A DNA stretch of 64,000 bases. Origin: Weissella confusa. Its GTDB lineage: Bacteria > Bacillota > Bacilli > Lactobacillales > Lactobacillaceae. The translations under genes and the position numbers were made by a program. Under the pieces are notes generated by a model. The model ran no database searches. It was not told the DNA's origin and saw nothing but the letters and a program-made list of their open reading frames with translations. Below are positions 1 to 23,843 of this stretch, in pieces. Position 1 is the stretch's first letter. Every line of letters starts with the position of its first letter. The DNA is taken from assembly GCA_014332815.1 (NCBI GenBank), contig JACSZT010000005.1, positions 39,994 through 103,993 of the forward strand, written 5' to 3'.

Positions 1-863
1 TTCACGCACCTTATCAGCCTTCCAATATCCCGTTCCGATGATACCCAAACCACCTGCCTCAGAGACAGCACCTGCAAGATGACCAGTCCCTGCCCAGGCC
101 ATACCACCTTGGATGATAGGGTACTTCATGCCTAACTTTTCATCTTCAGCAACAACCGCATCGACACCCTTCTTTTCCATCATCTTAGCAAGTCCAACTG
201 ATGGAACAACTGGAATTACCAAAATGTCGTGGCTGTGCAATTCTTCGATAAATGGTGATGGATCACCAGCACCGGTTGCGACAACCTTAACACCTTCTTC
301 GATGATGACGTCGAAGACTTCGCGAATGTGACGTGACAACGCGTGAACTTCAGATTCTTCCGAAGCCAAGAAACGTGTTCCCATTTGTACACCTGAGGCA
401 CCTAGCATGAAGGCCGCAGCAACGCCGCGACCATCTGCAATACCACCAGCTGCGATAACTGGAATCTTCAATGCGTCAACCACTTGCGGTACCAACGTCA
501 TCGTCGTCAACATACCAATGTGACCACCTGACTCCATAACAGCTCGGCGAAGTGAACCATTTTCAAGTTCTTCAATCGCATCTGCATCTGGCTTAGGCTT
601 TGTGATTTCAATACGTTCTTGTTTAACAAAGTTCTTTGACATCTTCGTCTTCAAAACACGAGCGCGGTTACCCATCAATTCACCGGTAACCAACGTATCA
701 ATGTCCTTTGCCTTGACAACGGCATTCTTGAAGTTGTTGCCAACTTGTTGGGCACCTTGACCACTCATCAATAGTCCTAGTTTCATGTTCTCTCCCCTGT
801 TGTTTGGTTAGTTCAACAAGTCTTCGGCTTGTGACCAAACATCTTCTAGAATTTGTGCCACTG
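1..863 (-). CDS. fabK: Enoyl-ACP reductase II FabK, partial, block-inverted
   Basis: FMN-dependent enoyl-ACP reductase, last step of the fatty-acid elongation cycle in the cytoplasm. Visible pieces carry the FabK landmarks in block order: KYPIIQGGMAW near the N-terminus, VVATGAG, IPVVPSVGLAKMM, ESGGHIG, PVIAAGGIADGRG, GVQMGTRF and the C-terminal GAFMAGQISGM. The first residues and about 18 residues after KADKVRE lie outside the window. The stop comes 21 nt before fabD, with a GGGGAG ribosome site between them. It is the first visible gene of the fab/acc operon. Identity is firm; as printed it cannot be translated into a working protein. Confidence 0.9.
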
Positions 864-884
864 GCTTAATCTCAGTAATCATTC

Positions 885-1829
885 CTGAAATTTGACCAGC
901 CATGAAGGCACCGTTTTCCTTATCACCATCAAGCTCTGGCTTTGCCATAACGTCTGACAAAGCATTGTAAATACCCATACTCATTGCCAAAATAGCAGGT
1001 TGTGTGTACTTCGTTTGCTTGATGTTGTCTTCACTATTTACAACAGTGGCCATGACATCATAGCCAAGCAACTCACTCGCACGGTCAATTGTTTCTTGAT
1101 ATTCAGGTAAGTTTGCGTACAAGTCAGCTCCCCCTTGTAGCTTTTCAAGCGTTGCAACTACCATATCTTGTTCATCCGTCATAACGGCAACCATCTTACC
1201 TGGGTTGGCATCACCGGCCGCTTGCATGTAAGCACCACGATCCTTGATAATGCACATCGCTTGTTCAAACGTCATTGCACCTGCAGCAGTCAATGCACTG
1301 TATTCGCCCAAACTTAGGCCCAATGCAGCGCTTAAGCGAACTGCCAATTGATCAGCAGCCGTTTGCAACAATGGTGTGTGGAAAGCCCCTGAAACTGGCA
1401 ATTCAACCATACGTGAGACACCAGCTTCAGTTAGCGCTGCCATGGCATCATTAACATCTGCTTCAATACCACCAATGACCAATTGGTTAAATGTGTTGAA
1501 GTTAGCTGGATAAACGCGCTTGCCAGCTCTGGCAAACTTCATCAAGGTGTCGCTTGGACCAAACTCAATCAACGTATCAACACCATCATCAACCATCGCT
1601 TGCAACGCTTGGGCAAAGTAGGTTGGTGACGTGATTTGTTGCAACAAGGTTGCCTTCACGTCGTCAAACTTTTGACCCGTCGTGTTTGAATAAACAGCAA
1701 ATTCAGGCGTGTTAAACGTTTCGTCAAACACGTGCACCAGCTTCATCGAAAGCCTTGGCAATTGCCAACCCAATACCACGTGTTGATCCCGTGATCAACA
1801 CGTTCTTTCCTGCAAGATCCATTATTGTA
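885..1829 (-). CDS. fabD: Malonyl-CoA:ACP transacylase FabD, block-inverted
   Basis: Transfers malonyl from CoA to acyl carrier protein for fatty-acid synthesis. Restored length is 314 aa, normal for FabD. It starts MKLGLLMSGQGAQ and holds the nucleophile elbow GLSLGEYSAL with the active serine, and PVSGAFHTPLL with the catalytic histidine. The stop overlaps the fabG start (TAATG), as expected for translational coupling. As printed, its blocks form a false 323-residue minus-strand ORF (808-1779) with C-terminal parts first and the FabK tail at the end. That ORF should not be read as a new acyltransferase. Confidence 0.9.
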
Positions 1830-2551
1830 CTGTCTCCTGTTCTGCAATCAACATGTCGCGAACTTCATTAAATGAAGCAAGGTCCTTCACGCAGTAGCGC
1901 TTAACGTCCTTACCAACAATCTTCTTTCATCCCCATAGCCAACTTGTCGTCAACGATACCAGCGTTGTTAACCAAGATGTCGATGCCGTCTACTTCTTCA
2001 AGCAAACCTGCCAACGCATCGTTAACACTGTTTTCATCAGCGATATCAGCCGTAATTGCCAATGTGTCTTCACTGAATTCAGCCATTACTTCAGGCTTCA
2101 CGGCTGAACGTCCGTGCAAAATGAACGTCTTCGTCAATCCGACGATACCAGCCTTTGACGCAGCGTAGTTAGCTTGTCCAACGTTACCCATCAATCCCAC
2201 CACTGATGCGATGTTAATGATGTTTCCTGAACGGGCGCTCAACATCTTCTTGAAGAGTGGTTGCGTCACGTTAAACGTACCGTTCAAGTTTGTGTTCACC
2301 ACATTGGCGAATTCGCTAGGGTGGCCAGTGATGTAATCGTTTTGAGCCAAGAACAAGGCAGTTTGTGCGATTTCAGCCGCGTTTCCAAAACGCTTCAAAG
2401 GCACAGCCTCTAGGACTTGTTCCTTAACCTTGTCAGACAAAGCATCCGTCATGTCAGAAACGATCATGCCGGGCGCGATTGCGTTAACACGAATGCCACG
2501 CATTGCGCCTTCCTTTGCACCATCCAAAAAGTCATTTGCTGTATTACCGAC
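1829..2551 (-). CDS. fabG: 3-oxoacyl-ACP reductase FabG, block-inverted
   Basis: NADPH-dependent short-chain dehydrogenase reducing beta-ketoacyl-ACP. Restored protein is 240 aa, the usual size. Landmarks are the nucleotide-binding STRGIGLAIA motif near residue 13, ILVNNAG, the catalytic region with IINIASVVG and NYAASKAG (YxxxK), AIAPGMI and the C-terminal ITVDGGLYI. The start ATG overlaps the fabD stop by one base. The restored edge at 2122/2518 reads TKTFAKEGAMRG, good family sequence. This supports the 198-bp grid to the exact base. Confidence 0.9.
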
Positions 2552-2641
2552 GGGTGTAACTGCACCCAAACCTGTTACGACAACTCGTGTCATGTTGTTC
2601 TCCTCTACTTTCCTAAAGCGTTAGATACGACTTATTTAAAT

Positions 2642-3877
2642 AAGTTACGAAAGAATAAGTGCATCAAGTCGTATCTGGTTTCCTTAGATGTACAATCCAC
2701 CATCGACCGTAATTGTATCTGCCAAACCAGCGTTTTCCAAAGCTTCACCAGCTGCGTGAACGGCATATTGTGAGAACAAATCCATCTTGCGAGCTTCGCG
2801 CTTTCCAACGCGTTCTGCAGGATCGAAGCCCTTCACTTCACCGGCAACTGTGACACCCGTCTCTGTGGCGTCAAACTTTGTAATTGGGGCAATACCAACT
2901 TGACTGTTAAAGATTGTGTAGTTAATTCCCTTGGCACCGTAACGCATTGACACGTTACCTGACACCATGTTTGGGATAGCGTTTGGCACGAACATTGGGC
3001 TCACACGTTGTGGTCCCTTGTCGTGCATCTTGATAACTTGTTCTTCGATCGTCGTCAAACCACCGATTCCGTTACCCATGATAACGCCGAAACGATCCGG
3101 GTTATCAACACCATTAACATCAAATGGCTTTGAAGCTTCAAGTGGGTTGGGCTCAGTTGACAAAGCAGTCAACGCAGCAAATCCTGAGATTCCCATTTCG
3201 TTAACCGTTGCTTCTGAACCACCCGTAACCATCACATCGTACTTGCCTGATTGGATACGCCAGAAGGCTTCACCAATCGCGTTCGTCGCACTGGCGCACG
3301 CCGTTGACAACCCAGCGTCTTGCAAAGCCAACTTCACTGAACCAGCAGGTCCTGATCCGTCAGGTGTTGGACTCGTCAAGTGGTAGGCATCTGAGTTAGC
3401 CCCATAACCAACCACTTCGGCGATAATCTTGGCACCGCGAGCTTGCGCATGTTCCAAAGATTCCAAAACCAAAATTCCTGAACCTTCACCCATGACGAAA
3501 CCGTGACGTCGAACCAAAGCACCGATTGCAGCGATTGCTTCAATGGCACCAGCGGCTCCTAACAAGTGCCCTGTCATACCCTTAGTTGATGAAACAAGCA
3601 CACCGTTCTTTCCGAATACCAACTCCATTGCCTTTGATTCGGCAGCATCGTTAGCACCAGTAGCTGTTCCGTGCGCGTTGACATAGTCAATGTCGCTAGC
3701 TTCAATTTCGAATGTCATCTAATTGCAAACCCATTAATTCTCACTCCACTTCTTGAAAATGATAGCGGCGTTGTGGCCACCAAATCCGTAGTTAGCTGAC
3801 AAAACGTAGTTAGGGGCAACAAACTTGTTGTCGTCATTAACCAACGTTACACCAGCAGTTTCAGGATCTTGTTCCGT
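2642..3877 (-). CDS. fabF: 3-oxoacyl-ACP synthase II FabF, block-inverted
   Basis: Condensing enzyme that elongates acyl-ACP with malonyl-ACP. Restored length is 411 aa. It starts TRVVVTGLGAVTPVG and has the active-site cysteine in STACASATNAIGEAF, the first histidine in VNAHGTATGANDAAE and the second in YGFGGHNAAIIF near the C-terminus, so the Cys-His-His triad is complete. It begins about 90 nt after fabG with an AGGAGAACAAC leader. Its stop overlaps the accB start (TAATG). The printed minus-strand ORF 2684-3718 is a shuffled version containing five of its blocks plus the fabG tail. Confidence 0.9.
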
Positions 3878-4347
3878 CACACCAACGTTAACTGGCAATT
3901 GCTCGCTTTTCTTCCTTATCCAATGGATGATGCTCAGCAGCTGCTACAGGCGCCTCTGCTGTCGCGACACTCGCAACAGCTGGCTGTGCAGGCGTCGTGA
4001 CAACAGGTTGCGCGATTTCGTTCTTGCTCAAGTGCAAGCTGAAATCATCTGATTGCAATGAAAACTCACGCAATGAACTGTTTTCCAAATCTTGCATTAA
4101 AGCATCTTCTTCCTCAACCAAAATTTCAGTAATGATACCAGCAACTTCACTCTTTACTGGTGTCATCAACTTCATTGCTTCAACAATCGCAACTTGCTCA
4201 CCAACGGCAACGTGGTCACCCACTTGCTTAAATGGTGCTGCATCTGGATTTGGCTTCAAGTAAACCGTACCAACCAACGGTGCGTCGATTGTTACGCCTT
4301 GGACCTCTTCGTTGATTGTGATGTTCTTAATCGCAACCGTCTTCTCA
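3877..4347 (-). CDS. accB: Biotin carboxyl carrier protein of acetyl-CoA carboxylase, block-inverted
   Basis: Carries biotin between AccC and the AccA/AccD carboxyltransferase. Restored length is 156 aa. The N-terminus [19 protein letters not shown] is followed by an Ala/Pro-rich hinge, then the biotinyl domain with the EAMKLM motif whose lysine is biotinylated, and the C-terminal [13 protein letters not shown]. The start overlaps the fabF stop. The fabZ ribosome site GGAGG follows directly after its stop. Confidence 0.88.
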
Positions 4348-4359
4348 CCGGGTACCAAT

Positions 4360-4791
4360 TCCTCAACCGTATCCAACATCAACATTGGGTAACGGTGTGG
4401 CAAGATCTCTTGAATTTCTTGTGTGTTTAATACTGACATGTCGAGACCTCCTTAGGCATCCAATTCGACACGGAATAGTGCGTGACCGTAGTCAACAATA
4501 TCAAGCGTCACTTCAAGACGCATTTGATCACCAGGCTTTACCATCTTACGGAAACGGGCCTTCTTGATACCACCAAAATAAGCTGTCTTACCCTTGAACT
4601 CAGGCATTGACAACAACGCCACTGCACCAGCTTGGGCAAGAGCCTCAACCGTCAAAGCGCCTGGGAACGTTGGGTTACCAGGGAAGTGGCCTTGGACGAA
4701 GAGTAAATTGCGACAGATTTAATGCCCATTTCCTTCAGTGTACGGATGACACGAACGGCGATTTCACCGCGGTTCGCGACTAACACTTTCT
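4360..4791 (-). CDS. fabZ: 3-hydroxyacyl-ACP dehydratase FabZ, block-inverted
   Basis: Hot-dog fold dehydratase making trans-2-enoyl-ACP. Restored length is 143 aa. It starts with [23 protein letters not shown] and holds the active-site stretch [24 protein letters not shown], whose His and Glu form the catalytic pair. A GGAGG ribosome site lies 7 nt before the ATG. Located between accB and accC, as in the conserved lactic-acid-bacterial fab cluster. Confidence 0.9.
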
Positions 4792-4792
4792 T

Positions 4793-6169
4793 GAACATTT
4801 TAGTCTCCAATAATAAACGTCAAATCAGCTGTTGTAGCCTTCTTACCGTTAACGTAAGCAATACCCTTACCCTCACCGATTGGTCCGCGCAAACAAAACC
4901 AACCGCTTCCGCCATTTCAACGAATAACTCATTTTCAGATAAGAAACCATAACCTGGATGAATTGCTTCAGCACCCGTCAACAAAGCGGCGCTCAAGATA
5001 TTCTTCATGTTCAGGTAACTATCTTTTGACTTTGGTCCTCCAACTGAAATTGCTTCATCGGCCAACTTCACATGGAGGCTATCCGCATCAGCGTTACCAC
5101 CGCCACCAGCCGCAGCCTTTAGCAATAGTGGATAGCCCACGCGATCAGCCACCGCCTTGGCTTCTGTAGCATCACGAATGAAGCCTTCAGAACCAGGAAT
5201 AACTGGTACGCCAGCAGCTCGCATTGATTCACGGGCGTTGGCCTTGTTACCCATCAGCTCAATCACCTTAGGGCTCGGACCAATCCACTTGTGCAATGAG
5301 CAGTTACGCTCAGGGAAGTACAATACATTGCCGAAACGATCACGCATCACTTGCATCTCAATGTGACGCACGTTCTCCATAACCTTTTCAACGTACATGT
5401 GTTCATCCCCAAACGCAGCCTTCGCTTCACGTTGGGCATCATCGAACTTGTCTGCCAACTCATCAGCTGAGTAAACAAAACGCATTCCAGGGTGCTCAAC
5501 CTGAATACGTGTGTTCATTTCCATAAAGTAGAAATTGCCATCGTGGTCTTGCAAGAATTCCAACGTCCCAGTGTTCTCGTACTGCAAAGCGTTAACCGCC
5601 TTCGTTGCGATTTCACCAAGGTTGTCACGCATTTCTTGCGTGACACCAAGCGCTGGACTTTCTTCCATTACCTTTTGATTATTACGACCACCTGTTGGCA
5701 AAAAGGCAAAATCAATTGTGCCGGCACTTGGCGCAAAGTTCTTTGCTGGTTGTTCCGCATTCAAACGAACTTCCAAAGCATGTCCCTTCAAGGCAATGTC
5801 TGCTTGTGACACAGACAATGGCTCACCAGCTGCCACTTCAATTTGCATACGAATCAAGTCAACACCGGTTACCATTTCAGTAACAGGATCGTGCAACAAC
5901 GCCTTTTGGAATTCAGCGTTCGTGCTGACCCCGTGAACAACCAATTCGTCCAAGATACGATCCATCTTTGTAACTGCATCGGCACGGTTATTGGCGTGAA
6001 CCAACAACTTACCAATCATCGAGTCGTAGAATGGTTGAATCTTATCACCAGCATAAATGGCAGAATCGATACGAATACCAGGATGGGCACGCCAAGAACA
6101 AGCCATCTGGAATGCGATCGTTTAGGTTCGCATCTCGCTTAATCTTGGGAGTTGAAACCGTGGTGTTAT
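4793..6169 (-). CDS. accC: Biotin carboxylase of acetyl-CoA carboxylase, block-inverted
   Basis: ATP-dependent carboxylation of biotin on AccB. Restored length is 458 aa. Landmarks in restored order are [30 protein letters not shown], the glycine-rich ATP loop [23 protein letters not shown] and [12 protein letters not shown], which carries active-site Glu, Asn and Arg. The C-terminus ends with [16 protein letters not shown]. It starts 1 nt after fabZ and ends 11 nt before accD. The printed minus ORF 4820-6106 contains most of its blocks in reversed order. Confidence 0.9.
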
Positions 6170-6180
6170 TAAATAAATCC

Positions 6181-7026
6181 ATGCCTCTCCTCCTTAATCC
6201 GCCTTAGGCAGACTGGCTTGCCATCGTGGCAAGAACTCCTTCTCCAAGTAACGTGTGTCGAACATCCCACGGGCAACCGTTTTGTTGTTGCGCACGTTCC
6301 AACTTCGCCGCATACCCTGGGAAGTCTGAATCGGCCAACTTCAAATCAGCATCTAGTTCTTCAAAATCATTCGTCATCAAGGCCATGCGTTCGCGTGCTT
6401 GCAAACGGAAACCATAACCACAATTTGGGCAGACACGGTGGTCACCCAATTGCTTTGAATAGAGTTGTGCGCCACAGTACATACGCGCACCACCTGATGC
6501 GGTAAACAAGATGACTGGCAACTTAGCTGCCGTCGCGTGCTCAAACAAGCGCGTGATTTTTTCACCCGTGATTGAACCCAATGACCCCATGATGAAGTAA
6601 GAATCCATGATACCAATAGCGACGCGTTGGTCTTCAAGGGTCGCTACTCCCGTCAAGACTGAGTCGCCCAATTCCGCGATGACACGCTTACCAGCAAAAC
6701 CAATCAACGCGTGTGGCTCTGCCAATGTAATGTCACCTTGCATGGCGAATGATGCGGTTACCCCACCCATTGTAGGGTCCGTTAGAACCACAATGTATGG
6801 TAAACCGGCATCTTGGTGCGCCGCAACTGCGCCTGACACCTTTGCCATTTGCATCAATGAGTGAATACCCTCTTGCACCACCTGCACAGGGGTTAATTCA
6901 CGACGAAATAGGGCTGCCATTTACTTAACCTCCGCTGTTTGGTGAAAACGCACAAGTTGTGCGAGAATTGCTGCCATTTGTGGGCGTTGCACAATCGCAT
7001 CGATAAAGCCATTTTCCATGACTGTC
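6181..7026 (-). CDS. accD: Acetyl-CoA carboxylase carboxyltransferase beta subunit, block-inverted
   Basis: With AccA transfers the carboxyl group from biotin to acetyl-CoA. Restored length is 281 aa. An N-terminal zinc ribbon is visible (CPYCG ... CPNCGYG), followed by the crotonase-fold region with [18 protein letters not shown] and [20 protein letters not shown]. The glutamate in VIEQT appears only when the block edge is set at 7072; 2 nt to the right it would be a TAG stop. Stop TAA is followed at once by the accA ATG. Confidence 0.9.
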
Positions 7027-7812
7027 TCGGCACGTTGGAACTCCTTCGGCAACTTTTCGTGAATCGTTTGCTAGCGCTTTGCCAACTTGTCTTTGATGTC
7101 GGTTCCCTTGTCGATGGCAATCACCGTCACTGGCTTACCATCAAGGTTCGCTAGGCCACCGATGACACTCGCGTCATCACCAGCAAAACGATCACCGTGT
7201 AGTTCAAAGAAATCAGTGAAGATACCGTCAATAATTTCGCGTGCTGAGAATCGATCCTCACGCGACTTTTAGGCAATCATTGGTACCGGGTACGTCATAC
7301 TTTGCAGAATACTTTGGGCGATTGCCTCACCTTGTCCTTGGTCTTCAGCTGACTTACCAGGAAAAGCACCTGGCGTGTTGATAAAGGTGATGATAGGACG
7401 ACCAAACTTAGCCGCTTGGTCCATCAAACGGGTAGCCTTACGATAACCGTACGGCTCAGGAGACCCGTAAATCTCGTTCGCTAAGAGATCATTTGGCGTC
7501 AAGCCCATCAATTCGGCTGCTTCAGCACTGCGCTTGGCATCTTTCCACAAAATAGCTGCAAATCCTTCCGGAGAGAGAATGGAATACGTTGCATTTTGGA
7601 ACATCCAAACTTGGTCAGATGTCGCTAGGGCCAACGCGCCCCCTGACCCACCTTCACCGTACACAAAAAACGCCAGATAGTAACTATCTGGCGTTCGATA
7701 TTGAATAATTGCAATTGTTTAAAATGCTCGGAAACGTGCGCGACGTTGCTTAACAAGTTCGTCAGGTGCAAGTGTTTGCAACTTTGAAATCTCATCTTGC
7801 AACTTGGCACGA
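7027..7812 (-). CDS. accA: Acetyl-CoA carboxylase carboxyltransferase alpha subunit, block-inverted
   Basis: Partner of AccD. Restored length is 261 aa. Landmarks are [71 protein letters not shown] and the C-terminal [11 protein letters not shown]. Start is directly after the accD stop. It is the last gene of the operon and is followed by a strong intrinsic terminator. Confidence 0.9.
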
Positions 7813-7836
7813 ACCAAATTGAAGACACGTGCATGT

Positions 7837-7870
7837 GAGCGACTCTCTGGCACGATGTAGTCAATTATCC
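7837..7870 (-). terminator. Terminator after accA (restored position)
   Basis: Restored sequence has an 11-bp stem ACGCCAGATAG/CTATCTGGCGT with a TTA loop and a seven-T tail, seen as printed at 7663-7694. The T tail is completed only by joining two blocks. Confidence 0.8.
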
Positions 7871-7910
7871 AATCCTTCGCGGTTAATTCGCTCCGCTAAT
7901 TTTTCAATGA

Positions 7911-8609
<699 letters not shown>

Positions 8610-8706
8610 TGGTTTGCTCCAAATAATAGGCTAATGCCTGTGGATGTTCGATGACTACATACCAGCCGTTCCGAATGAAAGTGGTTGGTAGAATGCGTCT
8701 TCAGCA

Positions 8707-10431
8707 GCCTTTTCGTCAGCTGCCAACTTCTTCATATCGTCTTGCAAGTTTTGTGGCAAATCAGTACGATCTGCCCAAATTTGGTAATTTTCTTGCCAAG
8801 TCATAAGTCTTTATTCTCCTTTTAATAAGTCCCCGAACTTACTACTAATGCTCACCTTGATGCCGTGCGCTCCCAAAACCTTAGCAGATTCGATTGCAAA
8901 TTCTGGTGAGAAGTGACGTGAATCGTAAGAGATTGCAACACCACGTCCCTTAACAGCGTCGTCCAATGAATCCATCAAACGTGCCAAACCTTCAGTTGCT
9001 TGGCGAACCGTAAAGATGTTCATACGGTTGATTCCAGCACCCAAAAGGCCACGGTCAGCTTCACGAATTGAGGCTGTGATGATGTCTGATTCCTTAGGTG
9101 GCATTTGACCACCATCTTCACCGTAAATCTTGTAACCGTTGTATTCCTTAGGGTTGTGTGATGCCGTAATCATGATACCTGCGTAGGCGTTCAAGTGGCG
9201 AACCGTGAATGACAACTCAGGCGTTGGGCGCAACGTCTCAAAGACATAAGAACCAGCAATCAAAGCACCCGTTCCGTGCAATGGTGAGTACACCAACTTC
9301 ATGTCCTTACCAACAGTGTCAATCAACTCTTGGTTAACCGTAACCGTCTTCACTTCAGCCAAGTAAGCATCGTCGACATCCTTGCCAATCTTAACCAACA
9401 GACCAGCTTCAACCAACTCAGCTTCATCCTTAACTGGCACTTCAAACACCGCCGTTCCCATACGGTCAGCATCTGGGTCAACCGCAATAACAACGTCAGC
9501 CCCTTGTTCCTTAGCCAAAGCAATTCCCATTGCCAAAGCTTCTGGATCTTCAGGATTTGGCAACTTAACCGTTGGGAAGTCCCCATTTGGCTCAGCTTGT
9601 TCAGGCACAATCGTCACGTTTTCAAAACCAGCGTTCTTCAATGCTTGAGTCAAAACGTTAATCGTCTCAACACCAAAGCTCTTAGCAATATCTGCTGCGA
9701 ATTCTGATGACACGATTGACTTAACCAACGCACCGTTTGCTGGCAAAGTGCCGGCAGCCTTCTTAGCCGTCAACAAGTAGTTCAACAAAACGGCACCGAT
9801 TTGGTTACCCGTCAACAATTGGTACTCACCTGATGGTTGACGAAGCAAACCGTCGTACAACGTCTTACCCAATGACTTGTAGTAAGCTGCTACTTCGGCC
9901 AACAAAACCGTTGCTTGAACTGAGTCCTTGTCGCGGGCAAATGACTTTACCAAGTAACCGTATGACTCTTCAAATCCGAACAAGAATGTGTGCTCGTTCG
10001 TGTCTTCGAAGTGTTGGATTTGCTCCGCAATATACTTAAATCCGGCACCCGTAGCTGTGTCCGTCTCAGTTTGCAATGAGAAGTCTTCAACCTTGGCAAC
10101 CTTAACACCACCAAATTCAGCCGGCGTCTCAGCACGGAACTTGTTCATCAATGATGCAATCTTGTCAGCACCGTCGATACCAGCAAACGTCAATGACTTC
10201 GTGTTTTCAACAAAGTAGCCGTATTGCTCGAACAATTCTTGTTATTATTAGTCTACATAAGTTGCAATCGTTGCTTGGATAGCAGCCAACTCTTCGTCAG
10301 CAGCTTGTGCCGTAGCACCCTTTGTTCCAACGTAGAACTTAATCTTTGGCTCAGTTCCTGAAGGACGAACGGCTACCCATGAACCGTCAGTCAACCAGTA
10401 CTTCACCACGTTTGCCTTTGGCAACGTCATT
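8707..10431 (-). CDS. pgcA: Phosphoglucomutase/phosphomannomutase, block-inverted
   Basis: Alpha-D-phosphohexomutase family, 574 aa restored, matching the long lactobacillal PgcA-type enzyme. Landmarks are [20 protein letters not shown] near residue 46, [12 protein letters not shown], the phosphoserine loop [14 protein letters not shown], metal-binding [18 protein letters not shown] and the C-terminal phosphate-binding [12 protein letters not shown]. An AAGGAG ribosome site lies before the ATG. Just upstream (end of rpiA) a TATAAT box is seen. The printed ORF 8811-10235 is its shuffled form. Confidence 0.88.
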
Positions 10432-10442
10432 GGCGTTATAAA

Positions 10443-10479
10443 TATTGATAGTCATCGAATGCTTGTTCAGTAAAAATCA
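10443..10479 (-). terminator. Terminator after the phosphohexomutase (restored position)
   Basis: GACCGCTACAAC/GTTGTGGCGGTC stem followed by TTTTTC, printed at 10596-10632. Confidence 0.75.
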
Positions 10480-10594
10480 GCTTTTTACCCCGCGCATACC
10501 GTCGGCTAACTTCTTAGCTGCTTTCATCGTCATCAGCCGTCACCTCATCTCTTATATATACCGTTATCATATCATGATGAAATAACAGCCACTA

Positions 10595-10834
10595 TGAAAA
10601 AGACCGCCACAACCCGATGAGTTGTAGCGGTCAATCTTAGCGAAGTTGGGCAATCGTCACATCCCCATTACTTTCAGGGAAATAAATCATGCGGTTCGCG
10701 CTATCAATGCGTCGTGACCAACCACCATCAAGGCCTGCTTGCAGTTCAGGCTTACCTGTCCCTTCAAACGGCGTGCGGAAGACTTCCTTCAGAAGCTTGT
10801 TTATCTTTTTCGTTGTCTTTGGATCTTGCGTCAA
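10595..10834 (-). pseudogene. yoeB: YoeB-like mRNA interferase toxin, block-inverted, start unclear
   Basis: Restored frame reads LIFTEQAFDDYQYLLTQD, then PKTTKKINKLLKEV, TPFEGTGKPELQ, WSRRIDSANRMIYF and ends IAQLR, a full YoeB/RelE-fold RNase with the family's Glu, Arg and C-terminal aromatic/basic residues. No ATG, GTG or TTG lies in this frame after the upstream stop. An ATG with a GAGG site 16 codons upstream is in another frame and would join only with one extra A in an A-run of five. No YefM antitoxin is seen beside it. The frame problem lies inside one block, so it is not due to the block inversion. Either a sequencing slip or a decayed orphan toxin. Confidence 0.6.
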
Positions 10835-10874
10835 CAAATATCGTCTGCAAATTCACCCGTGCCGACTTGTCCAA

Positions 10875-11909
10875 CTGAGGCGATTTCCTTTTGGTTCTTG
10901 AAATTCACCACGCCAACTGTCGCCCCGAACAAACGGCCGTCATCGACCATCTTTTGGGCGATATTTTCTAGGCGTTCAATTAATTCTTCCATTTTCAATA
11001 TCTCCTCAAGACGTCATTGACTTCATGTAGTGTCCTTACGCACGCTACTTGGCAAACCAGAATTGTGCCAAAGCAATTGACCAAGCGTAATGTCAGCGTT
11101 ACCAAAAGTTGGCAAAATTGATTGTACCGTCGTTTCGGGCGTTACCGTCGCTGACTTGAATAATTGCAAATAACGCATTGTCGTATAGAGCTTGGTCAAA
11201 CTCGCTAAGTCATAAATGTGGTTCACTGACTACCCTGAGTTAGTTAAGTTCTTGGGTGCCAACACATTTGCCGTCACATCAAGTGCCAGTGGCATATCAT
11301 CAAGTGCTTCAAGCGCTTTACCCAACACCATGAAGCCGACATCAGAATACTTCGTCACTGTACCAGGTTCATTGATTGTGTCGCCAATCATCAAATCTTC
11401 TTCGAGCATCTCACGCGTCAATTCAGGCAGCATCAACCATTCATGTACGAATGACAAAGCATCTTCAGCTGTCGCAAACATACCAGCGTGTCCCCCAGCA
11501 CCGCCAAGCAAGTGTGCCTTAAAATCATCAACCTCACCTTGCAAGACGCCACCACGGAATGGTACGTCTTCAGTTGGCACGAAACGATCAAGTGGCGCAT
11601 CAAAACGGCCCTTGTCAGCAACGCGACTCAAAACGACCATCCCCTGCATTGTACGGTAATTCACTGCCATAATCGTGCCCGTGAAGCCCGTTTGGTACAA
11701 CCAATCCGTGACCACAACCGGGTTATCTTCCCCACCATACGTCCAGTAGTGCCAACCAAACGTGCGAATCCCGGCCTGATTGTCCTTAAGATAAGCATGC
11801 ATATCAGCTGGCAAATCTTCATCCCACCGCGATAATAATGATAATTGTCATGTATGTTGCCCCCTATTAAATTGTTTTTATGACATATTTTAATGCTAAT
11901 TTCATTTTA
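10875..11909 (-). CDS. Serine hydrolase, beta-lactamase class C family, block-inverted
   Basis: Restored 344 aa. MEELIERLENIAQKMVDDG, then VGVVNFKNQKEI, the nucleophile SxxK motif in YDLASLTKLYTT, LLWHNSGLP, a YSDVGFMVLG motif in the YxN position and a C-terminal GHAGMFAT/GTIMAVN region. Members are esterases or D-Ala peptidase-like enzymes; the substrate cannot be told. At the 10834/11230 edge the join gives DDIWSVNHIYDL, while a 2-nt shift would put a TAG there. No signal peptide is evident, so probably cytoplasmic. Confidence 0.8.
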
Positions 11910-11995
11910 CCAGAAATAAGTTGGTATATCAGGTAAATCAAATTTGGGCAAAGAAAGCTTGCGTAAATTCATAGCGGTCTTTTAGCCAGCTCGTG

Positions 11996-12565
11996 TTATT
12001 ACGCGTTGGGTGTACTCGGTTCTTTACGCAATGACACAACCTTCTCCAGCGTACCTTGTTCGAACTTGGCATAACCCTTAACCGTTTCCAACAAGTTCGG
12101 AATCAAATCGTTACGACGCTTCAATTGCACATCAATTTGGCTCCAAGCCTCTTGTGTGTGCATACGCGCCTTAACCAAGCCGTTGTAGATGCTGATCCAA
12201 ATCAAACCAATCACGACTACCGTGTTGAACAATTGACGTGAGTAAGCAATCTTGTTTTCAGTGTTCGTCAACTCATCCATTAACTTGTTGTATTGGGTTG
12301 ATGCCTTCAAGTCTGGGTAAGCTTCCGCAACCGCAAAGACTGACTTCAAGCTCGTCGTCAATTGGTCAGAAATTTCCATGGCTTGTTGGTGGTCGCCAGA
12401 TGGCACTTGCGTCAAAGCAACGCTTGTTTTTGGCAATTTGGTCAAATAACATCTGCGTTTAAACCTCGATTACATTCCTTGATCGTCAAATGAAACCTTA
12501 ACAACCTGCTTCTCTTCTTCAGGCGTCTCCAAGAATTCGCTTGGTTGGAAGTGGTGAATCCCAGC
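11996..12565 (-). CDS. lemA: LemA family protein, block-inverted
   Basis: Restored 189 aa. One N-terminal membrane helix ([20 protein letters not shown]), then the coiled LemA domain with [31 protein letters not shown] split over block edges, and the C-terminal [17 protein letters not shown]. Function is poorly defined; it is almost always next to HtpX, as here. An AGGGGG site precedes the ATG. About 90 nt upstream lies an AT-rich stretch with TGGTAAAAT, a possible promoter. Confidence 0.88.
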
Positions 12566-12582
12566 GATGATGTTCGTTGGGA

Positions 12583-14989
<2,407 letters not shown>

Positions 14990-15022
14990 TGGAATTCATG
15001 CGTGGCCTCAACCAGCATCTTG

Positions 15023-15058
15023 GTAATCCAGTTTGTACCAATTACACCTAACTTTAGT
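15023..15058 (-). terminator. Terminator between rlmD and the oxidoreductase (restored position)
   Basis: Imperfect GC-rich stem AGCTCGCCGACTG/TTTGGTGGGCT followed by TTTTTT, printed at 15125-15160. Confidence 0.65.
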
Positions 15059-15069
15059 GTCATTTCCAT

Positions 15070-15100
15070 ATCCCTCGTTTCCTAAAAGCGCTTTCAATAA
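15070..15100 (-). promoter_or_regulatory. Promoter with CcpA cre-like site before the Gfo/Idh gene (restored position)
   Basis: Restored order is TATAAT, then 11 nt, then TGAAAGCGCTTTTA, one base from a consensus cre, then the ribosome site and ATG. A cre just after the start point normally gives CcpA roadblock repression. Printed at 15083-15113. The whole element sits inside one block. Confidence 0.6.
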
Positions 15101-15119
15101 TACTTTTATTATACCTTGC

Positions 15120-16112
15120 ACCACCAAAAAAGCCCACCAAACAGTTAAACAGTCGGCGAGCTTCTTCGGGTTATCGATTTAATTTTTTAGCCGTGTAACT
15201 CGTGTTCGATGGCTTGTACAACTTGGTCATAGTGCAGGCTGTTTGGTGAAGCGATGTAAACCACTTCGATACCACTGTTGTAGAAATCTGCCAAATCAGT
15301 AAACACAGGGACATCCCCGAAATCAGCGGCAAAGGCTGCCCCAGTTTCAGCACGGCGTGAGTATACGGCTGCTAGTTCATAGTCATTATGTGAAGAGTAC
15401 TTCTCATAGACCAGTGTCGCACCAGAAATGTGGTCCATTTCACCAATCTTCTTCGCAATTGCCTTAAAGTTTGGTTGGTGAATGTGGCGTGTAGCCTCAA
15501 ACAAACGCACATTTGGGTGCTCACGAAGCAATGAGTACACCGCTTCGTACTCCTTCGTGTTTGAAAAGGCTGACTTTTCAACAATCGCAGCATAACGCAA
15601 AATAGCGATACCACGACCATCAGCCCCATTACGCAATGGCGTTGCGAAGTAGTGGCTTTCCTTCGGCATACCGAACAAGGCAATCGCTGCATAAAGTGGA
15701 TAAACACCCAAGTCGGTCAACGCACCGGCACTAAACTCACGCGTCAACACGTTCGGCTCCTCACCCGCCAAGTACGCATCAAAGACGAAGACGCTCATTT
15801 CAGCCACCATTGGGTTACCAGGGAATTCTTCACTCAAGACTGTGTCGTTGCCTTGACCATCCTTGTACGTGACTTCATGCAACTCTGCAATGTTGTCGAT
15901 GACAATAGTGTCACGCAACCCAAGAATTTCAGACGTCAAATAGCTGTTGGCACCCTTACCGAATTGCACTGTCACATCAAAGCTCATTGTCTTTCTAATT
16001 GTAACAGAAAAGCGCCCCACAAAACGTGCGACGCTTATCATTCGTTCATTTTACTTATCAGCTGGGAAAACAATTCCTGCGTCTTGACGCAAGTTTGTCA
16101 TCACAATGTTGA
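15120..16112 (-). CDS. Gfo/Idh/MocA family oxidoreductase, block-inverted
   Basis: Restored 330 aa NAD(P)-dependent dehydrogenase acting on a sugar or similar polyol. N-terminal Rossmann motif KLGVIGTNWI, then AVYSRRAETGAAFAADFGD, VYIASPNSLHYDQVVQAIEH, a TNFKAI-type central region and LTDLGVYPLYAAIALFG, where the D-x-G-x-Y segment marks the catalytic face. C-terminus QDAGIVFPADK. An upstream ATG 6 nt earlier is possible; this start has the better spacing from GAGG. The cre site suggests catabolite control. Substrate unknown. Confidence 0.8.
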
Positions 16113-16202
16113 CGCGTTGGCTCAATGTCAACAATTGACGGTATTCTTCATCGTTAGCAACTGGATCATTGATAATCTTCACCGGTACCAACGTTGGCAA
16201 CA

Positions 16203-17501
16203 ATGGCCACGTAAAGGCCAAAGTCTTTCCAGTTCCAGTTGGTGCCAAGGCATCGATTGATTCACCAGCAGCCAATGGTTCAGCTACGGCTTCTTGAATT
16301 GGCGTTAGCGTGGTAAACCCAACACTAGCCAATCGCTCTTCAAAACGAGTATCCATTTTCTATCCTCATTCAATTTCTGATTCAGCAACACGACCTGGTG
16401 TTCCAACAATCACTTCTGGGTGCTTCTTCAAGGCATCTAGTTGACGCTTCACGTTCGCGCCACCAGTCAAAGCCAACACCTTCAAGTCCACCAAAGTTGC
16501 CCATTCACGTACAACACGGGTCGTTTGCATGGCCAATTCTTGTGATGGTGCCAAGATTAGCAATTGTTCACCATCCTAGTCGCGATCGAACAAACCAGCC
16601 GCGATTGTCGTATCTACTTCTGTCGCCCCAAATAAAGCAACTTGTACATCAGGGTCGTCAATAGCGTCCCATACGCCGTCAATTTGCTTAGCAGTATCTT
16701 CAGTCAACAATTCGTCTGCTTCGTCCAAAAGCAACGTACGCAAACGCTTCAACTTCAACTTACCGTTGTCGACCTCCATTGCCACGTGTTCGTGCGCCAA
16801 GAAACTAGCCGTCACCTTCAATTGCTTGGTCGTGTTAAAGAACACAATCGCTTGGAAGTTCTTGCGCGCTGCCAATTGGCGTAAGCGCTTGTTGCGTTGC
16901 TCGCGGGCAGTTGGCCAGAATTCGTGGGCAATTGCCGTTGGAATTGGGACATTACGTTGGTCAATACGCGTACTACGACCCGTACGGCCGGCACGGTGTG
17001 TATAAGTTTCACCGTTACGTGGCAAATCAAAGTTGATAACCGCTGACAAGTCAGGAATATCCAAACCACGCGCAGCCACATCAGTCGTCAACAAGAACTT
17101 TGCCGTACCCTTACGGAAGTTTTCCAATGACTTGGCGCGCGTTGAACTAGAATCACCACGGACCAATGTCTTTGCAACCGGACGTGGCTTATCAGCCGTT
17201 TCCTTGTTTGCACCTGGTTCTACCGTATGACCAGCTGACCCTGAGAATGACGTTGGCTTCGTAGCTTGACTAGCACCGTTGACCAATTGAATATCAACAG
17301 CCACCAAACGACGCAAATCACGCAAATCGTGATCATTTCCGAATGAAATAACCAAACCATGCTTGCCCAATACATTTTCACAAACTAAGAGCAAAAAGAA
17401 AGACCGCTATTTCCGAAATAGCGGTCTAAATGCCTAGTTTTCGCCGTTTTTACGCTTTGGCTTACCCTTATTTTTACTGTGCTTACGCTTAGCTTTTTTC
17501 T
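16203..17501 (-). CDS. DEAD-box ATP-dependent RNA helicase, block-inverted
   Basis: Restored 432 aa, CshB-like. Motifs in restored order are Q motif TPIQEAV, Walker A APTGTGKT, PSQELAMQ, TPGRV, DEADELL, FGAT in place of SAT, TTDVAARGLDIP and HRAGRTGR. A strongly basic C-terminal tail rich in Lys follows, ending KPKRKNGEN, likely RNA-binding. Cold-adaptation or ribosome-assembly roles are known for this family. An intrinsic terminator follows the stop. Confidence 0.87.
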
Positions 17502-17507
17502 CTTTTG

Positions 17508-17542
17508 CGAAGCGATCTGTACGCGCCACAACTTCTTCGGCC
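17508..17542 (-). terminator. Terminator after the helicase gene (restored position)
   Basis: AGACCGCTATTTC/GAAATAGCGGTCT stem with TTTCTTTTT tail, printed at 17393-17427. Confidence 0.8.
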
Positions 17543-17689
17543 TTCTTTTTTTGGACCTTACGCACCTAACAAAAGCTTCAAGTAACGGTAATAAATTGGC
17601 AAACGCTTAGCGGTCGCGCGGGGGATGTCATGTTCTGCCATGTCAACCTACCTCATTTTCTAAAAAATTTTATTTTCATGCTATTTCAC

Positions 17690-18334
17690 AAACAAAAAAA
17701 CGTTTGTGAACTCTCTATCCTTATTTATAGTAACACATTCCCTGCTTTATGTGAACTAAATAACGACTCCGACAAGGGCAACTGATGCCAAAGTGTCTTG
17801 GTTCAAAATTTCACCGAAGAACGTCATCAATGCCTTAACGTCGTACCCGTAACCACGCTTTCCCAATGCACCAAAGTATGAGAAATCACGACGAATCGTC
17901 GCAGCGTCAAACTTAACAGCATCAGACAATTCGTTTGATGAAACGCGAGTCGTCCCCGCATCCACTGGTGCTGGGACCGTCAAAATTGCCACATCAATGC
18001 GTTGATCAGAAATTTGCTTCTCCAAATCGTCCATGCTGTATACAGGGACACCAGCTTGAATCGTGTTCACGATATCTTCGTTAATATCAAAAGCTGCAGA
18101 AATGCGGGCGTTTGAGCTTTGGTGGAAGTTAAAGTTCAACAAAGCTTGTCCCAAATTACCTGGAATGGGTGACTTCTCGTGTCATTATTCAGCCTCTGAA
18201 GCGCCAAAGTTATTGATGAAGTACAACAACGTTTGCAATTCGTTCGTCAAATCAACGTTTTGTACGCGGACATCACTAGGCACATCCAAACGCAATGGCG
18301 TGAAGTTCAAAATTCCGTGTACCCCGGCCTTAGC
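17690..18334 (-). CDS. rex: Redox-sensing transcriptional repressor Rex, block-inverted
   Basis: NADH/NAD-responsive repressor of fermentation genes. Restored 214 aa: N-terminal winged helix with [41 protein letters not shown] and KRGYGYDV, then the Rossmann motif [11 protein letters not shown] and [10 protein letters not shown]-terminal [13 protein letters not shown], with [16 protein letters not shown] matching the family. Upstream (printed 17676-17701) an inverted repeat pairs TTCACAAAC with GTTTGTGAA, resembling Rex half-sites but facing outward, so autoregulation is only a guess. A hairpin of GTCACCC/GGGTGGC plus TTTTTATTT follows the stop, split over two blocks. Confidence 0.9.
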
Positions 18335-18385
18335 CAAACGGTTAGCCAATTCTTGGGCTGGGGCCCATTTTACAAACAGTCGTGA

Positions 18386-18634
18386 TGGTTAGGCACGCCT
18401 ATTTGAGGCGTTATCATTTTAGAGGTCTTAGACAATAATAACGTCTGTAACATATGAGAAATGCTAAGTATGAACTACTTAACATATATCATTCTACCAA
18501 AACGACTTTCACAAAGTAAGCGTTGTCATGTTTCAAAATGAAATAAAAAGCCACCCGTTTAACGTAAAGTTGGCAATCTCGTTATGAAAAATCAAGCCCA
18601 ACGAAATTATCAAAATCAGTAGTACACCCAGCCA
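18386..18634 (-). other. Noncoding leader before the sortase, with terminator-like hairpin
   Basis: About 250 nt without a gene after restoration. It holds a TAGAAT -10-like box, a small AACGCC..GGCGT hairpin and, about 50 nt before the sortase start, an ATGGGCC/GGCCCAT stem followed by TTTTTATT. A promoter followed by a terminator before the start codon fits a small RNA or an attenuator-type leader. No known riboswitch was recognised. Confidence 0.4.
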
Positions 18635-19369
18635 TTTCAGCCATGCGAATTTCTTCTTCTTTTTCTTTTCACTCATATCAACGTCACCCCTCGTTAATTT
18701 ACTGATATCGTACCACCAAATTAATAAAAAGATGGGCCTCCGATATGAATATATGCCGTTTGAAATTGGTACCGAAATACCAACTTCCGGCACAGCGACA
18801 AAGCCAATAAAATTAATCTTGTCTGAATTCAAGCGCGCTTGTAGCACCTGCTGCGCTGTTAAAGCGCCCACTTTCTGCCAATCGTAGTTCGCCTGTTTCT
18901 TTTCTTTCTGCCCGGCCTTGATCGATTGCTTTGTAACTTGTGGTTCGAATGATTTGTAGCGATAAACCTTGTTCATATCAGTCAGATAAATGTCTTGGCC
19001 CACTTTTCCTTTGTAGTAAAGTGGCGAGAACAGCAAATCACGGCCTGAGTCACCTGGAATAAAGTGAGAAGCTAAGGCATAATTGCCTTCCCCCATCACT
19101 TCATCAGGAAACATCGTCCCAGCACCTAGCGACAAGTTTAAATCAGTCGTACGGTTATCCGTAGTGAATGCCTTTTGAATGTCTTTTGGCGTTTCTGCCC
19201 AAGTCTTTACCCCTTGTAGCTCACCACGCATCATAATACGGCCACGTTCGGCCGTGTAATCACACGTGATCAACGTGACCAGCTTCTTACCTTCAACTGG
19301 GTAAACCCAATCGACATCGGTTGGCTGAATCACCTTGAAGTCCACTGCTTTAAAGTCCGCCATAACTAA
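18635..19369 (-). CDS. srtA: Sortase (class A-like), block-inverted
   Basis: Membrane transpeptidase anchoring LPxTG proteins to peptidoglycan. Restored about 240 aa. Lysine-rich start MSEKKKKKKFAWLKWLG, one membrane helix (LLILIISLGLIF), then VGISVPIS, the histidine in ASHFIPGDSGRDLLFSP, the cysteine in TLITCDYTAERGR and an arginine shortly after (ERGRIMM). His-Cys-Arg are all present. The last codons depend on whether the next 198-bp block (19349-19546) is also inverted; both readings give a stop within 7 codons. A GAGGGGTGA site precedes the ATG. Confidence 0.85.
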
Positions 19370-19538
19370 CTATGTCTATTACTACAACAATAAGCGGATA
19401 AAAACAAAACTGGCCGGAAGAACTCCGGTTCAATACCGAAATCTTTCCGACCAGTTAGCCGCTTAAACGTCACTCCAATTTTCGGGGTTCAGTTCATGGC
19501 ACCAAATACGGCGCCAATGGCTTTTTTTGAGTCGTTAC
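19370..19538. other. Junction between block-inverted region and prophage
   Basis: Noncoding. Contains a stem AACTGGTCGG/CCGGCCAGTT (19408-19456) with a T-rich tail on the minus strand, so as printed it terminates the leftward prophage genes. At 19471-19496 the minus strand reads TGAACTGAACCCC followed by a GAAAATTGGA-like stretch, similar to IS3-family inverted-repeat ends; no transposase is present. Whether 19349-19546 is itself an inverted block cannot be decided from frames. Confidence 0.5.
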
Positions 19539-20003
19539 TTAATCCACGATATATTTAATTGACTCATCTGCCTTATGCTCCAAGTCTCGAATGCGTTCAA
19601 CCGTCATTTTGTAGAAGTTGTCTGCATCTTCTTCGCTAGTGTCATAGGATAGGTATGCAAATTTTGCACTATCGCGGTAGATGTCATGCGAAAACGCACT
19701 GATGTGATCCATTTTTAGACGTTGTGCCGCCTTTGCAAGGTCAGTTTTGAGTTCATCTGGGAAATCATTCGAGAAGATGTGATAAACGGTCACAATGACC
19801 TTGCTGTGAGGATTGATGACCATACCAACTTCACCGCTATGCCATACTTGTGTGCCGTTATTTTGCATCTTGACCATTTCTGCATCCATGTTGAATGACG
19901 TCAGCCAGTTCTTCCAATTATTTCGCTCCGTTTTGAAGCGGCTCTTCAATTGCTCTGCTGCATGCTCACTGAACTCATACAGCTCAATACGCTTAATTCC
20001 CAT
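19539..20003 (-). CDS. Hypothetical phage protein
   Basis: 154 aa, not recognised. Starts MGIKRIELYEFSEHAAEQLKSRFK; mixed alpha/beta with a TVYHIFSND segment and an acidic C-terminus. An AAAGGAG site lies 7 nt before the ATG. It is last in the leftward early operon, after the DnaD-like protein, where phages often carry transcription activators or recombination accessory genes. The last codon spans a position that would be a block edge (19546/19547), so the true C-terminus may differ by one or two residues. Confidence 0.7.
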   Translation of the reverse strand: MGIKRIELYEFSEHAAEQLKSRFKTERNNWKNWLTSFNMDAEMVKMQNNGTQVWHSGEVGMVINPHSKVIVTVYHIFSNDFPDELKTDLAKAAQRLKMDHISAFSHDIYRDSAKFAYLSYDTSEEDADNFYKMTVERIRDLEHKADESIKYIVD

Positions 20004-20055
20004 GTTTACTCCTTTGTTACCCGCCCTATCCCGTCATCGCTGACACACTCTTAAT

Positions 20056-20580
20056 TTAGAAACGCTGTACAACACGTCTGCCGTTCGCTGTGCGCCCGTT
20101 TGACGCATTAGCGGCTAATCGGTCAGCTCGTGTCCTTCTAAGTTCTGACAGCTTCTCTGCTGTCCCCTTAGCCATATCTGCAACTGATGCATAGCCAAGT
20201 TCTTTAGCCATACGTTGATTTTGTTGATCAATCTGTTCAGCAGTCGGTTTACTTGGTCCGGTTTCACGTTGAATCGGCTGGTTTCCGTACCGTGTTTGCT
20301 GAATCTTTTGAGCTTCACTTTCATATTCACCAACAGCCGTTGCATTAGTAGCGCCAGCATTCAGCCACTTATTTAAGTTATTCTCAACAGCCATCGCTGT
20401 CTTACCACCATTTTTTTCAGCTGCTCGAATGGCTAAGATGATTAGCTTATTTGCTTCTTCGTCAGAATCAGCATTATGAACAGCTAGTTCATACAGGTTC
20501 GTGATGTCTTGAAACATAAAGCCGTTTTCTTTTAACCCTGCTTTTTGCCACTCAATGATGATTTGCTTTTGATTTAACAT
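20056..20580 (-). CDS. Phage replication protein with DnaD-like C-terminal domain
   Basis: 174 aa from MLNQKQIIIEWQKAG. The middle part, with helices ending in NNLNKWLNAGATNAT, matches the DnaB/DnaD domain that ends in a Trp-containing 'ILxxWxxxG' helix. The C-terminus is basic with Arg-rich NGRTANGRRVVQRF. A GGTGGAG site precedes this ATG; an in-frame ATG 12 nt and others up to 30 nt upstream are less well placed. It lies next to the iteron cluster and the winged-helix protein at 20754. The two together look like the two halves of a usual phage replisome organiser. Confidence 0.65.
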   Translation of the reverse strand: MLNQKQIIIEWQKAGLKENGFMFQDITNLYELAVHNADSDEEANKLIILAIRAAEKNGGKTAMAVENNLNKWLNAGATNATAVGEYESEAQKIQQTRYGNQPIQRETGPSKPTAEQIDQQNQRMAKELGYASVADMAKGTAEKLSELRRTRADRLAANASNGRTANGRRVVQRF

Positions 20581-20654
20581 TTTCTCCACCATTTGGCTGG
20601 CTAGTACCATCGACTTGGTTCCGTATACTATGAGTGCGGCTAGCCAGCGGGCCG

Positions 20655-20784
20655 ATTGATATTCTTTAATTATTGATATTCTTATAAATTGATATTCTTA
20701 GGGTGTCGGTTTACTACATGTAGTAAATGCGACATGTGGTTAATGCCCTGATATCAACGTTCACCAGGTGTCGCATTTGCGACA
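20655..20784. other. Candidate phage replication origin: iterons and palindromes
   Basis: Three exact copies of ATTGATATTCTT at 20655-20666, 20672-20683 and 20688-20699. They are followed by a perfect 18-bp palindrome TTTACTACATGTAGTAAA at 20710-20727 and a GCGACATGTGGTT direct repeat at 20729-20741 and 20779-20791. A TGTCGCA/TGCGACA palindrome lies at 20769-20784. The site sits between two replication genes and is AT rich, as expected for an initiator-bound origin. Confidence 0.65.
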
Positions 20785-21080
20785 TGTGGTTTTTCGTGTA
20801 CAATCCGCTCCCATTCAACGATTTGGCCCTTATTATTTCGCAATGGTTGGCGCGTCATGTACCCATACTTTTCCAAGATATTCATCTGATTTGAAACCCA
20901 ACGCTCGTTGTGACCCAAGTCCTTTGCAATGACCGAATTGTGAAACACCCAGTTATCAGCCATTGATAGCATGTACATCAGTAACCGATATGGGCCATCT
21001 TTTAAGCGTGTGTCTCGCAATGTCTCATTCGGTATCTGGGTAAACCCATGGGGTCGCCTTTCTCTTTTGATCATCATCAA
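20754..21080 (-). CDS. Phage replisome organiser, winged-helix N-terminal domain
   Basis: 108 aa. KRERRPHGFTQIPNETLRD then RLKDGPYRLLMYMLSMAD and LGHNERWVSNQMNILEKYGYM form the helix-turn-helix domain typical of phage DnaD-type initiators. Ends in TGA without a DnaD domain, which is instead in the gene at 20056 beyond the iterons. It overlaps the HNH gene by 56 nt. AAGGAG just before a run of three ATG codons leaves the exact start within 6 nt. Its last codons contain the TGTCGCA palindrome. Confidence 0.7.
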   Translation of the reverse strand: MMMIKRERRPHGFTQIPNETLRDTRLKDGPYRLLMYMLSMADNWVFHNSVIAKDLGHNERWVSNQMNILEKYGYMTRQPLRNNKGQIVEWERIVHEKPHVANATPGER

Positions 21081-21750: not shown

Positions 21751-21760
21751 CTCTCACCTC

Positions 21761-22630: not shown

Positions 22631-22641
22631 GTTTTTTACCC

Positions 22642-23766: not shown

Positions 23767-23843
23767 GTCATTCCTCCATGTGTTACCCTTATCGGGTAGT
23801 TAACTATTCCAAATTAATTACCGACGCTTAACGGTTGCAGCCG

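What the first reader, a model, noticed from the sequence alone, without database searches (positions are those of the whole stretch)
1..19348. 98 consecutive 198-bp blocks, each inverted in place, scramble about 20 genes
Seen directly: every protein in this part appears in 66-codon slices on the minus strand, in an order opposite to that strand. Setting edges at 142+198k and inverting each block restores full-length, frame-intact plus-strand genes. All edges I worked through agree to the base, from 142 to 18160, with no lost or added bases. Essential genes (accA-D, fabD, fabF) cannot function in the printed form, and no repeats mark the edges. The likely cause is fixed-window processing of the source assembly. 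If real, it would be an unknown DNA-scrambling process, which I consider very unlikely.
Basis: partly seen in the sequence, partly recalled or inferred. Interest (0 to 1): 0.96.

Follow-up and report, generated by a model that had tools for sequence, protein, structure and literature searches.

The report
Software-scrambled stretch of Weissella genome record
The first 19,546 bases of this stretch, and other large parts of the same Weissella genome record, are printed with successive 197-base pieces flipped in place, which is likely a software fault in preparing the assembly and not something the bacterium does.

Summary
Against an intact Weissella confusa relative, every matched piece of the left part of this contig is inverted in place on a 198-base grid (143 of 143). 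In the window the scramble runs from base 1 to 19,546, not 19,348. It continues left to at least C20:15,783 and by its grid probably to base 1 of the contig. It stops at the base where contig C13 of the same assembly also ends. The same grid occurs in C12, C14, C18 and C24 and, on thinner evidence, C11, C15 and part of C19; C13, C22, C23, the middle of C12 and the rest of this window are intact where sampled. Run edges carry no motif or repeats. Completeness is only 66.5% at normal size. A chunk-wise reverse-complement routine (window 197, step 198), applied to whole assembler contigs before scaffolding, explains this. The program is unknown; raw reads could not be checked.

The parts
1..19546 (.). 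scrambled part of the window: right third of segment X = G000:C20:1-59539, which on the grid is a 139-base first piece plus 300 runs of 197 bases (C20:140-15782 by extrapolation of the grid)
   Evidence: matches to G003 and G010; run list and ORF alignments; restored ORFs
144..340 (-). first complete inverted 197-base run in the window; the window holds 98 complete runs (144+198k to 340+198k, the last 19350-19546) after the run tail 1-142
143..143 (+). first of the untouched single bases (143+198k, last 19349), printed in true position and strand
   Evidence: 98% of 56 blocks as predicted; 722 of 790 aligned runs in 8 segments
19547..64000 (.). segment Y (G000:C20:59540-103993), not scrambled: intact LepA, phosphoglycerate kinase, fumarase-like lyase, YfhO and others
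   Evidence: ORFs; Pfam matches of 10 ORFs; first bases equal the end of contig C13
136..7810 (+). fatty-acid synthesis genes, readable only after undoing the runs (restored coordinates): FabK-like 136-861 (first 73 residues outside), fabD-like 886-1827, fabG-like 1830-2549, fabF-like 2643-3875, accB-like 3878-4345, fabZ-like 4361-4789, accC-like 4794-6167, accD-like 6182-7024, accA-like 7028-7810
   Evidence: apart from the first, which lacks its start, each aligns end to end to one ORF of G003:C37, at 95-100% identity; in print the same ORFs match only in pieces; Pfam of printed ORFs; gene names partly recalled
7909..19358 (+). further genes in restored coordinates: rpiA-like 7909-8589, phosphoglucomutase-like 8708-10426, serine-hydrolase-like about 10854-11909, LemA-like 12039-12563, HtpX-like M48 peptidase from 12584, RNA methyltransferase with TRAM domain about 13586-14989, oxidoreductase-like 15115-16110, DEAD-box helicase-like 16204-17499, Rex-like 17691-18332, sortase-like 18636-19358
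   Evidence: (relatives G010 and G003), except the serine-hydrolase-like and methyltransferase ORFs, seen only; Pfam domains of printed ORFs; names partly recalled

Best explanation
Window bases 1-19546 are printed as successive 197-base runs, each reverse-complemented in place with every 198th base left untouched, and the likely cause is a faulty chunk-wise reverse-complement routine run on whole assembler contigs before they were joined into scaffolds. Shown: the rule itself; the same grid in seven well-covered segments of five contigs (C12 twice, C14, C18 twice, C20, C24) and a few runs of C19; grid phases that fit an origin at a contig start, contig end or join; intact contigs beside scrambled ones. 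Inferred: that one routine with a window of 197 and a step of 198 (an off-by-one between chunk length and step) did it; that it acted before scaffolding (some segments have the grid origin at their left end, others at their right, as if correctly turned over afterwards); that the last short piece is inverted whole; and that the cells' DNA is normal.
For: Period 198 wins a blind scan. G003, a relative in the same genus, matches in about 197-base pieces in reversed order; 143 of 143 matched pieces of C20 agree. Fixed-base rule: 722 of 790 bases before and 721 of 790 after a run as predicted, against 185 of 790 for a pure 198 inversion, over 8 segments with inner identity 0.91-0.94 (gap-free matches of 150-222 bases only, a run matched twice counts twice). 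Over 65 stretches (1,123,766 bases) of the genome, 852 neighbouring piece pairs run in reversed order, 0 forward and 10 fit neither; 15 of 65 stretches show intact alignments, up to 18.3 kb. Boundaries coincide with contig ends: C20 at 59539/59540 equals the end of C13; the intact middle of C12 begins and ends with the 147-base repeat end and is followed by a 100-N gap; C18 changes phase at 60472/60473 after an 82-base piece. No motif or repeat at edges. W. confusa records L104-L106 are collinear with G003:C37 over 8,000 bases each. Completeness 66.51% at 2,294,552 bases; the 12 same-genus relatives have 95-100%. ORFs of relatives align end to end only after undoing the runs.
Against: No raw reads or pre-scaffold contigs were available, so the artefact was not seen being made. 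The program is unidentified; 197/198 matches no common FASTA line width that I recall. One 595-base stretch of C18 (60669-61263) aligns without a long break inside a scrambled segment; it lies in internally repeated sequence and was not resolved. Ten neighbouring pairs fit neither order. A protein-level classification called some ORFs intact inside scrambled segments, which I put down to gapped alignments that bridge edges. 31 of 65 stretches gave no decisive match to the held relative sequence.
Confidence: 0.97

Rival explanations
2. The DNA in the cells is truly scrambled by an unknown process that inverts 197-base units at 198-base steps.
For: Only that the printed sequence says so.
Against: Grid phases follow contig ends and joins; no motif, inverted or direct repeat at edges; core genes broken; relatives intact; intact contigs in the same assembly.
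Confidence: 0.003
3. A wet-lab or assembler misjoin, such as fold-back chimeras from whole-genome amplification, made the inversions.
For: Such chimeras do invert segments (recalled).
Against: Chimeras have scattered lengths and lose or duplicate bases (recalled); here one unit length holds to the base in 8 segments, and one phase holds in C14 at three sampled places from about 18 kb to 122 kb.
Confidence: 0.003
4. Sub-mechanism rival: a line-wise flip of a wrapped FASTA file (each line reverse-complemented, line order kept, last character of each full line spared as if it were the line end) instead of an in-memory chunk routine.
For: Gives the same output for full lines; grid phases that fit an origin at the contig start agree.
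Against: Would need lines of 198 characters; and the last short piece seems inverted whole (125 of 125 bases at the end of C18 equal the repeat end), where a spared last character would be expected.
Confidence: 0.25

Closest known systems
Contig-orientation and scaffolding errors in draft genomes (mis-oriented contigs)
   Same: Error made when contigs are turned and joined; boundaries at repeats and contig ends
   Different: Usually a whole contig is turned the wrong way (recalled); here each 197-base run inside the contig is turned and the run order is kept
Shufflons and other recombinase-made inversions (recalled: Rci/R64, invertons)
   Same: Segments inverted in place
   Different: Those need inverted repeats at the edges and act on a few segments; here no repeats, hundreds of units per contig, constant length
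Scrambled germline genes of ciliates (recalled)
   Same: Coding segments inverted and out of order
   Different: Those carry short pointer repeats at junctions and variable lengths; neither is seen here

Membership tests
Chunk-wise reverse-complement data artefact | constant unit length independent of sequence | tested here: met
   period 198 in 8 segments
Chunk-wise reverse-complement data artefact | grid anchored to file objects (contig ends), not to genes or motifs | tested here: met
   phase fits an origin at base 1 in C12, C14, C18, C24; a run ending at the last base in the right part of C12; an origin at a join in C18 and C20; no motif. Close to a contig start the grid itself was seen in C18 (from base 199)
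Chunk-wise reverse-complement data artefact | undoing it restores intact genes and gene order of relatives | tested here: met
   for the window only; run order matches G003 contigs C18, C37, C79
Chunk-wise reverse-complement data artefact | raw reads contradict the printed order | not testable with these tools
   no reads held
Recombinase-made inversion (shufflon, inverton) | inverted repeats at both edges of each inverted unit | tested here: not met
   arm identity 0.255 at run ends, 0.242-0.263 at 10 other phases, 300 grid runs of C20:1-59539
Recombinase-made inversion (shufflon, inverton) | recombinase gene next to the inverted units | tested here: inconclusive
   an integrase-like gene lies at 28270-29334 in a prophage remnant on the unscrambled side; other scrambled contigs were not searched for one
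Ciliate-like gene scrambling | short direct repeats (pointers) at junctions | tested here: not met
   direct-arm identity 0.256 at run ends, about what unrelated bases give (no other phases were run for the direct arms)

The most novel reading that the evidence does not exclude
A so far undescribed tool fault (reverse-complement with window 197 and step 198) has silently scrambled large parts of this species-level reference genome and may sit in other public assemblies made with the same tool, where it passes as low completeness or as a pseudogene-rich lineage.
Probability: 0.3. Interest if true: 0.35.

Novelty: not a real feature. Interest (0 to 1): 0.13.

Why it matters
It is a database fault, not biology, but a large one: the contigs and segments in which the grid was seen add up to roughly 1 Mb of 2.29 Mb if they are scrambled throughout (estimate from lengths; C11, C15 and C24 were only partly sampled, C19 not counted). 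Gene content, pangenome and phylogenetic work that uses this assembly will miss or fragment those genes. The rule is exact, so the fault can be screened for by alignment to a close relative.

Tried and rejected
Total length of long stop-free frames as a grid detector: it found period 198 over the first 19 kb but was too noisy per 5 kb; dropped for alignment to relatives. Protein-level classification of stretches by tblastn: mixed calls inside scrambled segments (for example 7 intact and 6 scrambled in C20:20001-40000), which I put down to gapped alignments that bridge edges; dropped for the DNA-level test. Pure 198-base inversion: rejected, 185 of 790 against 722 of 790. Expecting the scrambled fraction to equal the missing completeness (33.5%): an early sum came near it (note), but C24 is scrambled too, so I make no such claim. 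A W. confusa paper with 24 contigs (PMC12982343; listing, passages) is another genome: 2,322,326 bp against 2,294,552. Two paper searches for such an artefact (0 papers; 10 listed, none of whose titles or abstract starts describes it; none opened) were narrow. The accC scan of 397 genomes of the family showed 9 matches in G000 and at most 5 in any other; only up to 4 candidates per genome were scored, the match list was cut, and of G000's 9 only the intact C23 copy was listed, so this is weak and does not show that other genomes are free of the fault. The 147-base repeat was not identified; the G003 contig that carries it gave no Rfam match at gathering score.
Full report
What was claimed. It thought this a processing artefact of the assembly.

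Observation. A blind scan of 37 periods (180-216) and all offsets, scoring long stop-free frames, put period 198 in all 15 listed best solutions, with offsets 143-162. The window is G000:C20:39994-103993 of an assembly with 24 contigs and 2,294,552 bases. DNA of window 2700-6100 matched the same-genus relative G003 (contig C37) in 17 pieces of 197-210 bases, on one strand but in reversed order; other relatives of the genus gave similar short pieces at lower identity. Against G003:C37, window 1-7869 breaks into 40 such pieces; window 15800-19352 does the same against G003:C79. Cut into its runs, C20:1-60200 gives 304 pieces; 143 had a match in the two G003 stretches held, and all 143 were on the same strand, with a step of -198 in 129 of 141 neighbouring pairs.

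Exact rule. In 56 blocks (gap-free matches over 150 bases) the first base of each block did not fit a 198-base inversion (18% match), but in 98% equalled the base that belongs there if it was never moved. Over eight segments of six contigs (C12, C14, C18, C19, C20, C24), 722 of 790 bases before a run and 721 of 790 after it follow this rule; 185 of 790 fit the pure 198 inversion, which is chance. Only gap-free matches of 150-222 bases at 80% identity or more were counted, and a run matched twice counts twice. Inner identity there is 0.91-0.94, so the rule explains what sequence divergence allows. So 197 bases are reverse-complemented and every 198th stays.

Genes. ORFs of relatives align end to end to the restored window and only in pieces to the printed one: for example an accC-like ORF of 458 aa, one alignment at 99% identity restored against 8 pieces of at most 75 aa printed; a fabF-like ORF of 411 aa, one alignment at 100% against 7 pieces of at most 85. 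Some printed matches are longer (up to 164 aa, oxidoreductase-like ORF); I take these as gapped alignments that bridge edges. Pfam matches of printed ORFs are partial and out of order: biotin carboxylase C-terminal domain at residues 3-74 and N-terminal domain at 338-404 of one ORF. Gene names beyond Pfam domains are recalled from the sequences. Window 10.9-11.9 kb and 13.6-15.0 kb were read only as restored ORFs, not compared with a relative at ORF level.

Limits. To the left the grid goes on through C20:20001-40000 and to at least C20:15783; further left G003 has almost no match, apart from a repeat whose longest matches cover C20:1-139, the size of the first piece on the grid. So C20:140-15782 is extrapolated. 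To the right the last run is window 19350-19546: the sortase-like ORF of G003:C79 aligns over all 241 aa at restored 18636-19358, and contig C13 ends with the reverse complement of what starts at window 19547. From there the window is intact: LepA, ABC transporters, phosphoglycerate kinase, AMP-binding enzyme, lyase and YfhO are matched by Pfam, after a prophage remnant with anti-repressor-like and integrase-like genes. The held G003 sequence had no long match to window 20001-64000, so this part rests on the ORFs and Pfam.

Elsewhere in the assembly. I compared 65 stretches of G000 (1,123,766 bases) with 721,250 bases of G003. 19 of 65 show two or more neighbouring pairs in reversed order; in all there are 852 such pairs, none forward, and 10 that fit neither. 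15 others show intact alignments longer than 260 bases, the longest 18.3 kb. The other 31 gave nothing decisive; six of them are all N. The starts of C11 and C15 lack useful G003 matches but break into pieces of 185-215 bases (30 and 29) against the G010 and G003 sequence held. Scrambled where sampled: C12 left and right parts, C14, C18, C20 left part, C24 start and 100-120 kb, a part of C19. Intact where sampled: C12 middle, C13, C16 end, C19 end, C21 end, C22, C23.

Anchoring. In C12, C14, C18 and C24 the grid has the phase of an origin at base 1 of the contig; in the right part of C12, of a run ending at the last base of the contig; in C18 a new grid starts at 60473 after an 82-base piece, and its own last piece is 125 bases at the contig end. 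The middle of C12 (62960-169715) is intact, begins and ends with the same 147-base repeat end, and is followed by a gap of 100 N. These look like ends of assembler contigs. A piece with its grid origin on the right (C20 left part, C12 right part) looks like a scrambled contig that was later turned over correctly; hence I infer that the fault came before scaffolding.

Controls. Edges carry no signal: highest information content within 12 bases of the fixed base 0.03 bits, against a mean maximum of 0.027 at 20 other phases; inverted-arm identity 0.255 and direct-arm identity 0.256 over 300 grid runs. Three W. confusa records are collinear with G003:C37 over 8,000 bases each (one of them is very probably G003 itself). 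In 397 genomes of the family the accC model matched G000 in 9 places, the most of all, and at most 5 elsewhere; only one gene is tested, few candidates per genome were scored, and the pieces in G000 were not in the cut list.

Against my reading. The tool that did it is unknown, no reads were available, and a 595-base stretch at C18:60669-61263 aligns without a long break in a scrambled segment; it is internally repeated and I did not resolve it. The public record itself could not be compared.

Verdict. It matters as a large fault in a reference genome.

Noticed in passing
window 19547-29334: The intact segment starts inside a prophage remnant: HNH nuclease-like gene (21025-21750), anti-repressor-like (25283-26092) and an integrase-like gene (28270-29334, + strand).
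   Followed up: partly
window 19546/19547 (G000:C20:59539/59540): Two assembler contigs seem joined here without N although both ends lie in sequence shared with other contig ends (C22 end on the left side, C13 and C23 ends on the right), so the join itself may be wrong.
   Followed up: partly
G000:C12:169716-169815, C19:163130-163229, C21:78850-78949, C1:998-1097: Scaffold gaps of exactly 100 N; three of the four lie next to the 147-base repeat end. Single N bases also occur in C19 and C22.
   Followed up: no
G000:C23:296050-297381: A second, intact accC-like gene on an unscrambled contig, over the NCBIfam cut-off; G003 also has two.
   Followed up: no
L104 and L105: Two records both titled Weissella confusa DSM 20196 differ from G003:C37 by different amounts (96.6% and 98.6% identity over 8,000 bases), so one may be mislabelled.
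   Followed up: no
G000:C18:60669-61263 (L122:669-1263): A 595-base stretch aligns without a long break to G003 inside a scrambled segment; internally repeated sequence, not resolved.
   Followed up: partly
G000:C2-C7: Six short contigs (323-1,693 bases) read entirely as N.
   Followed up: no
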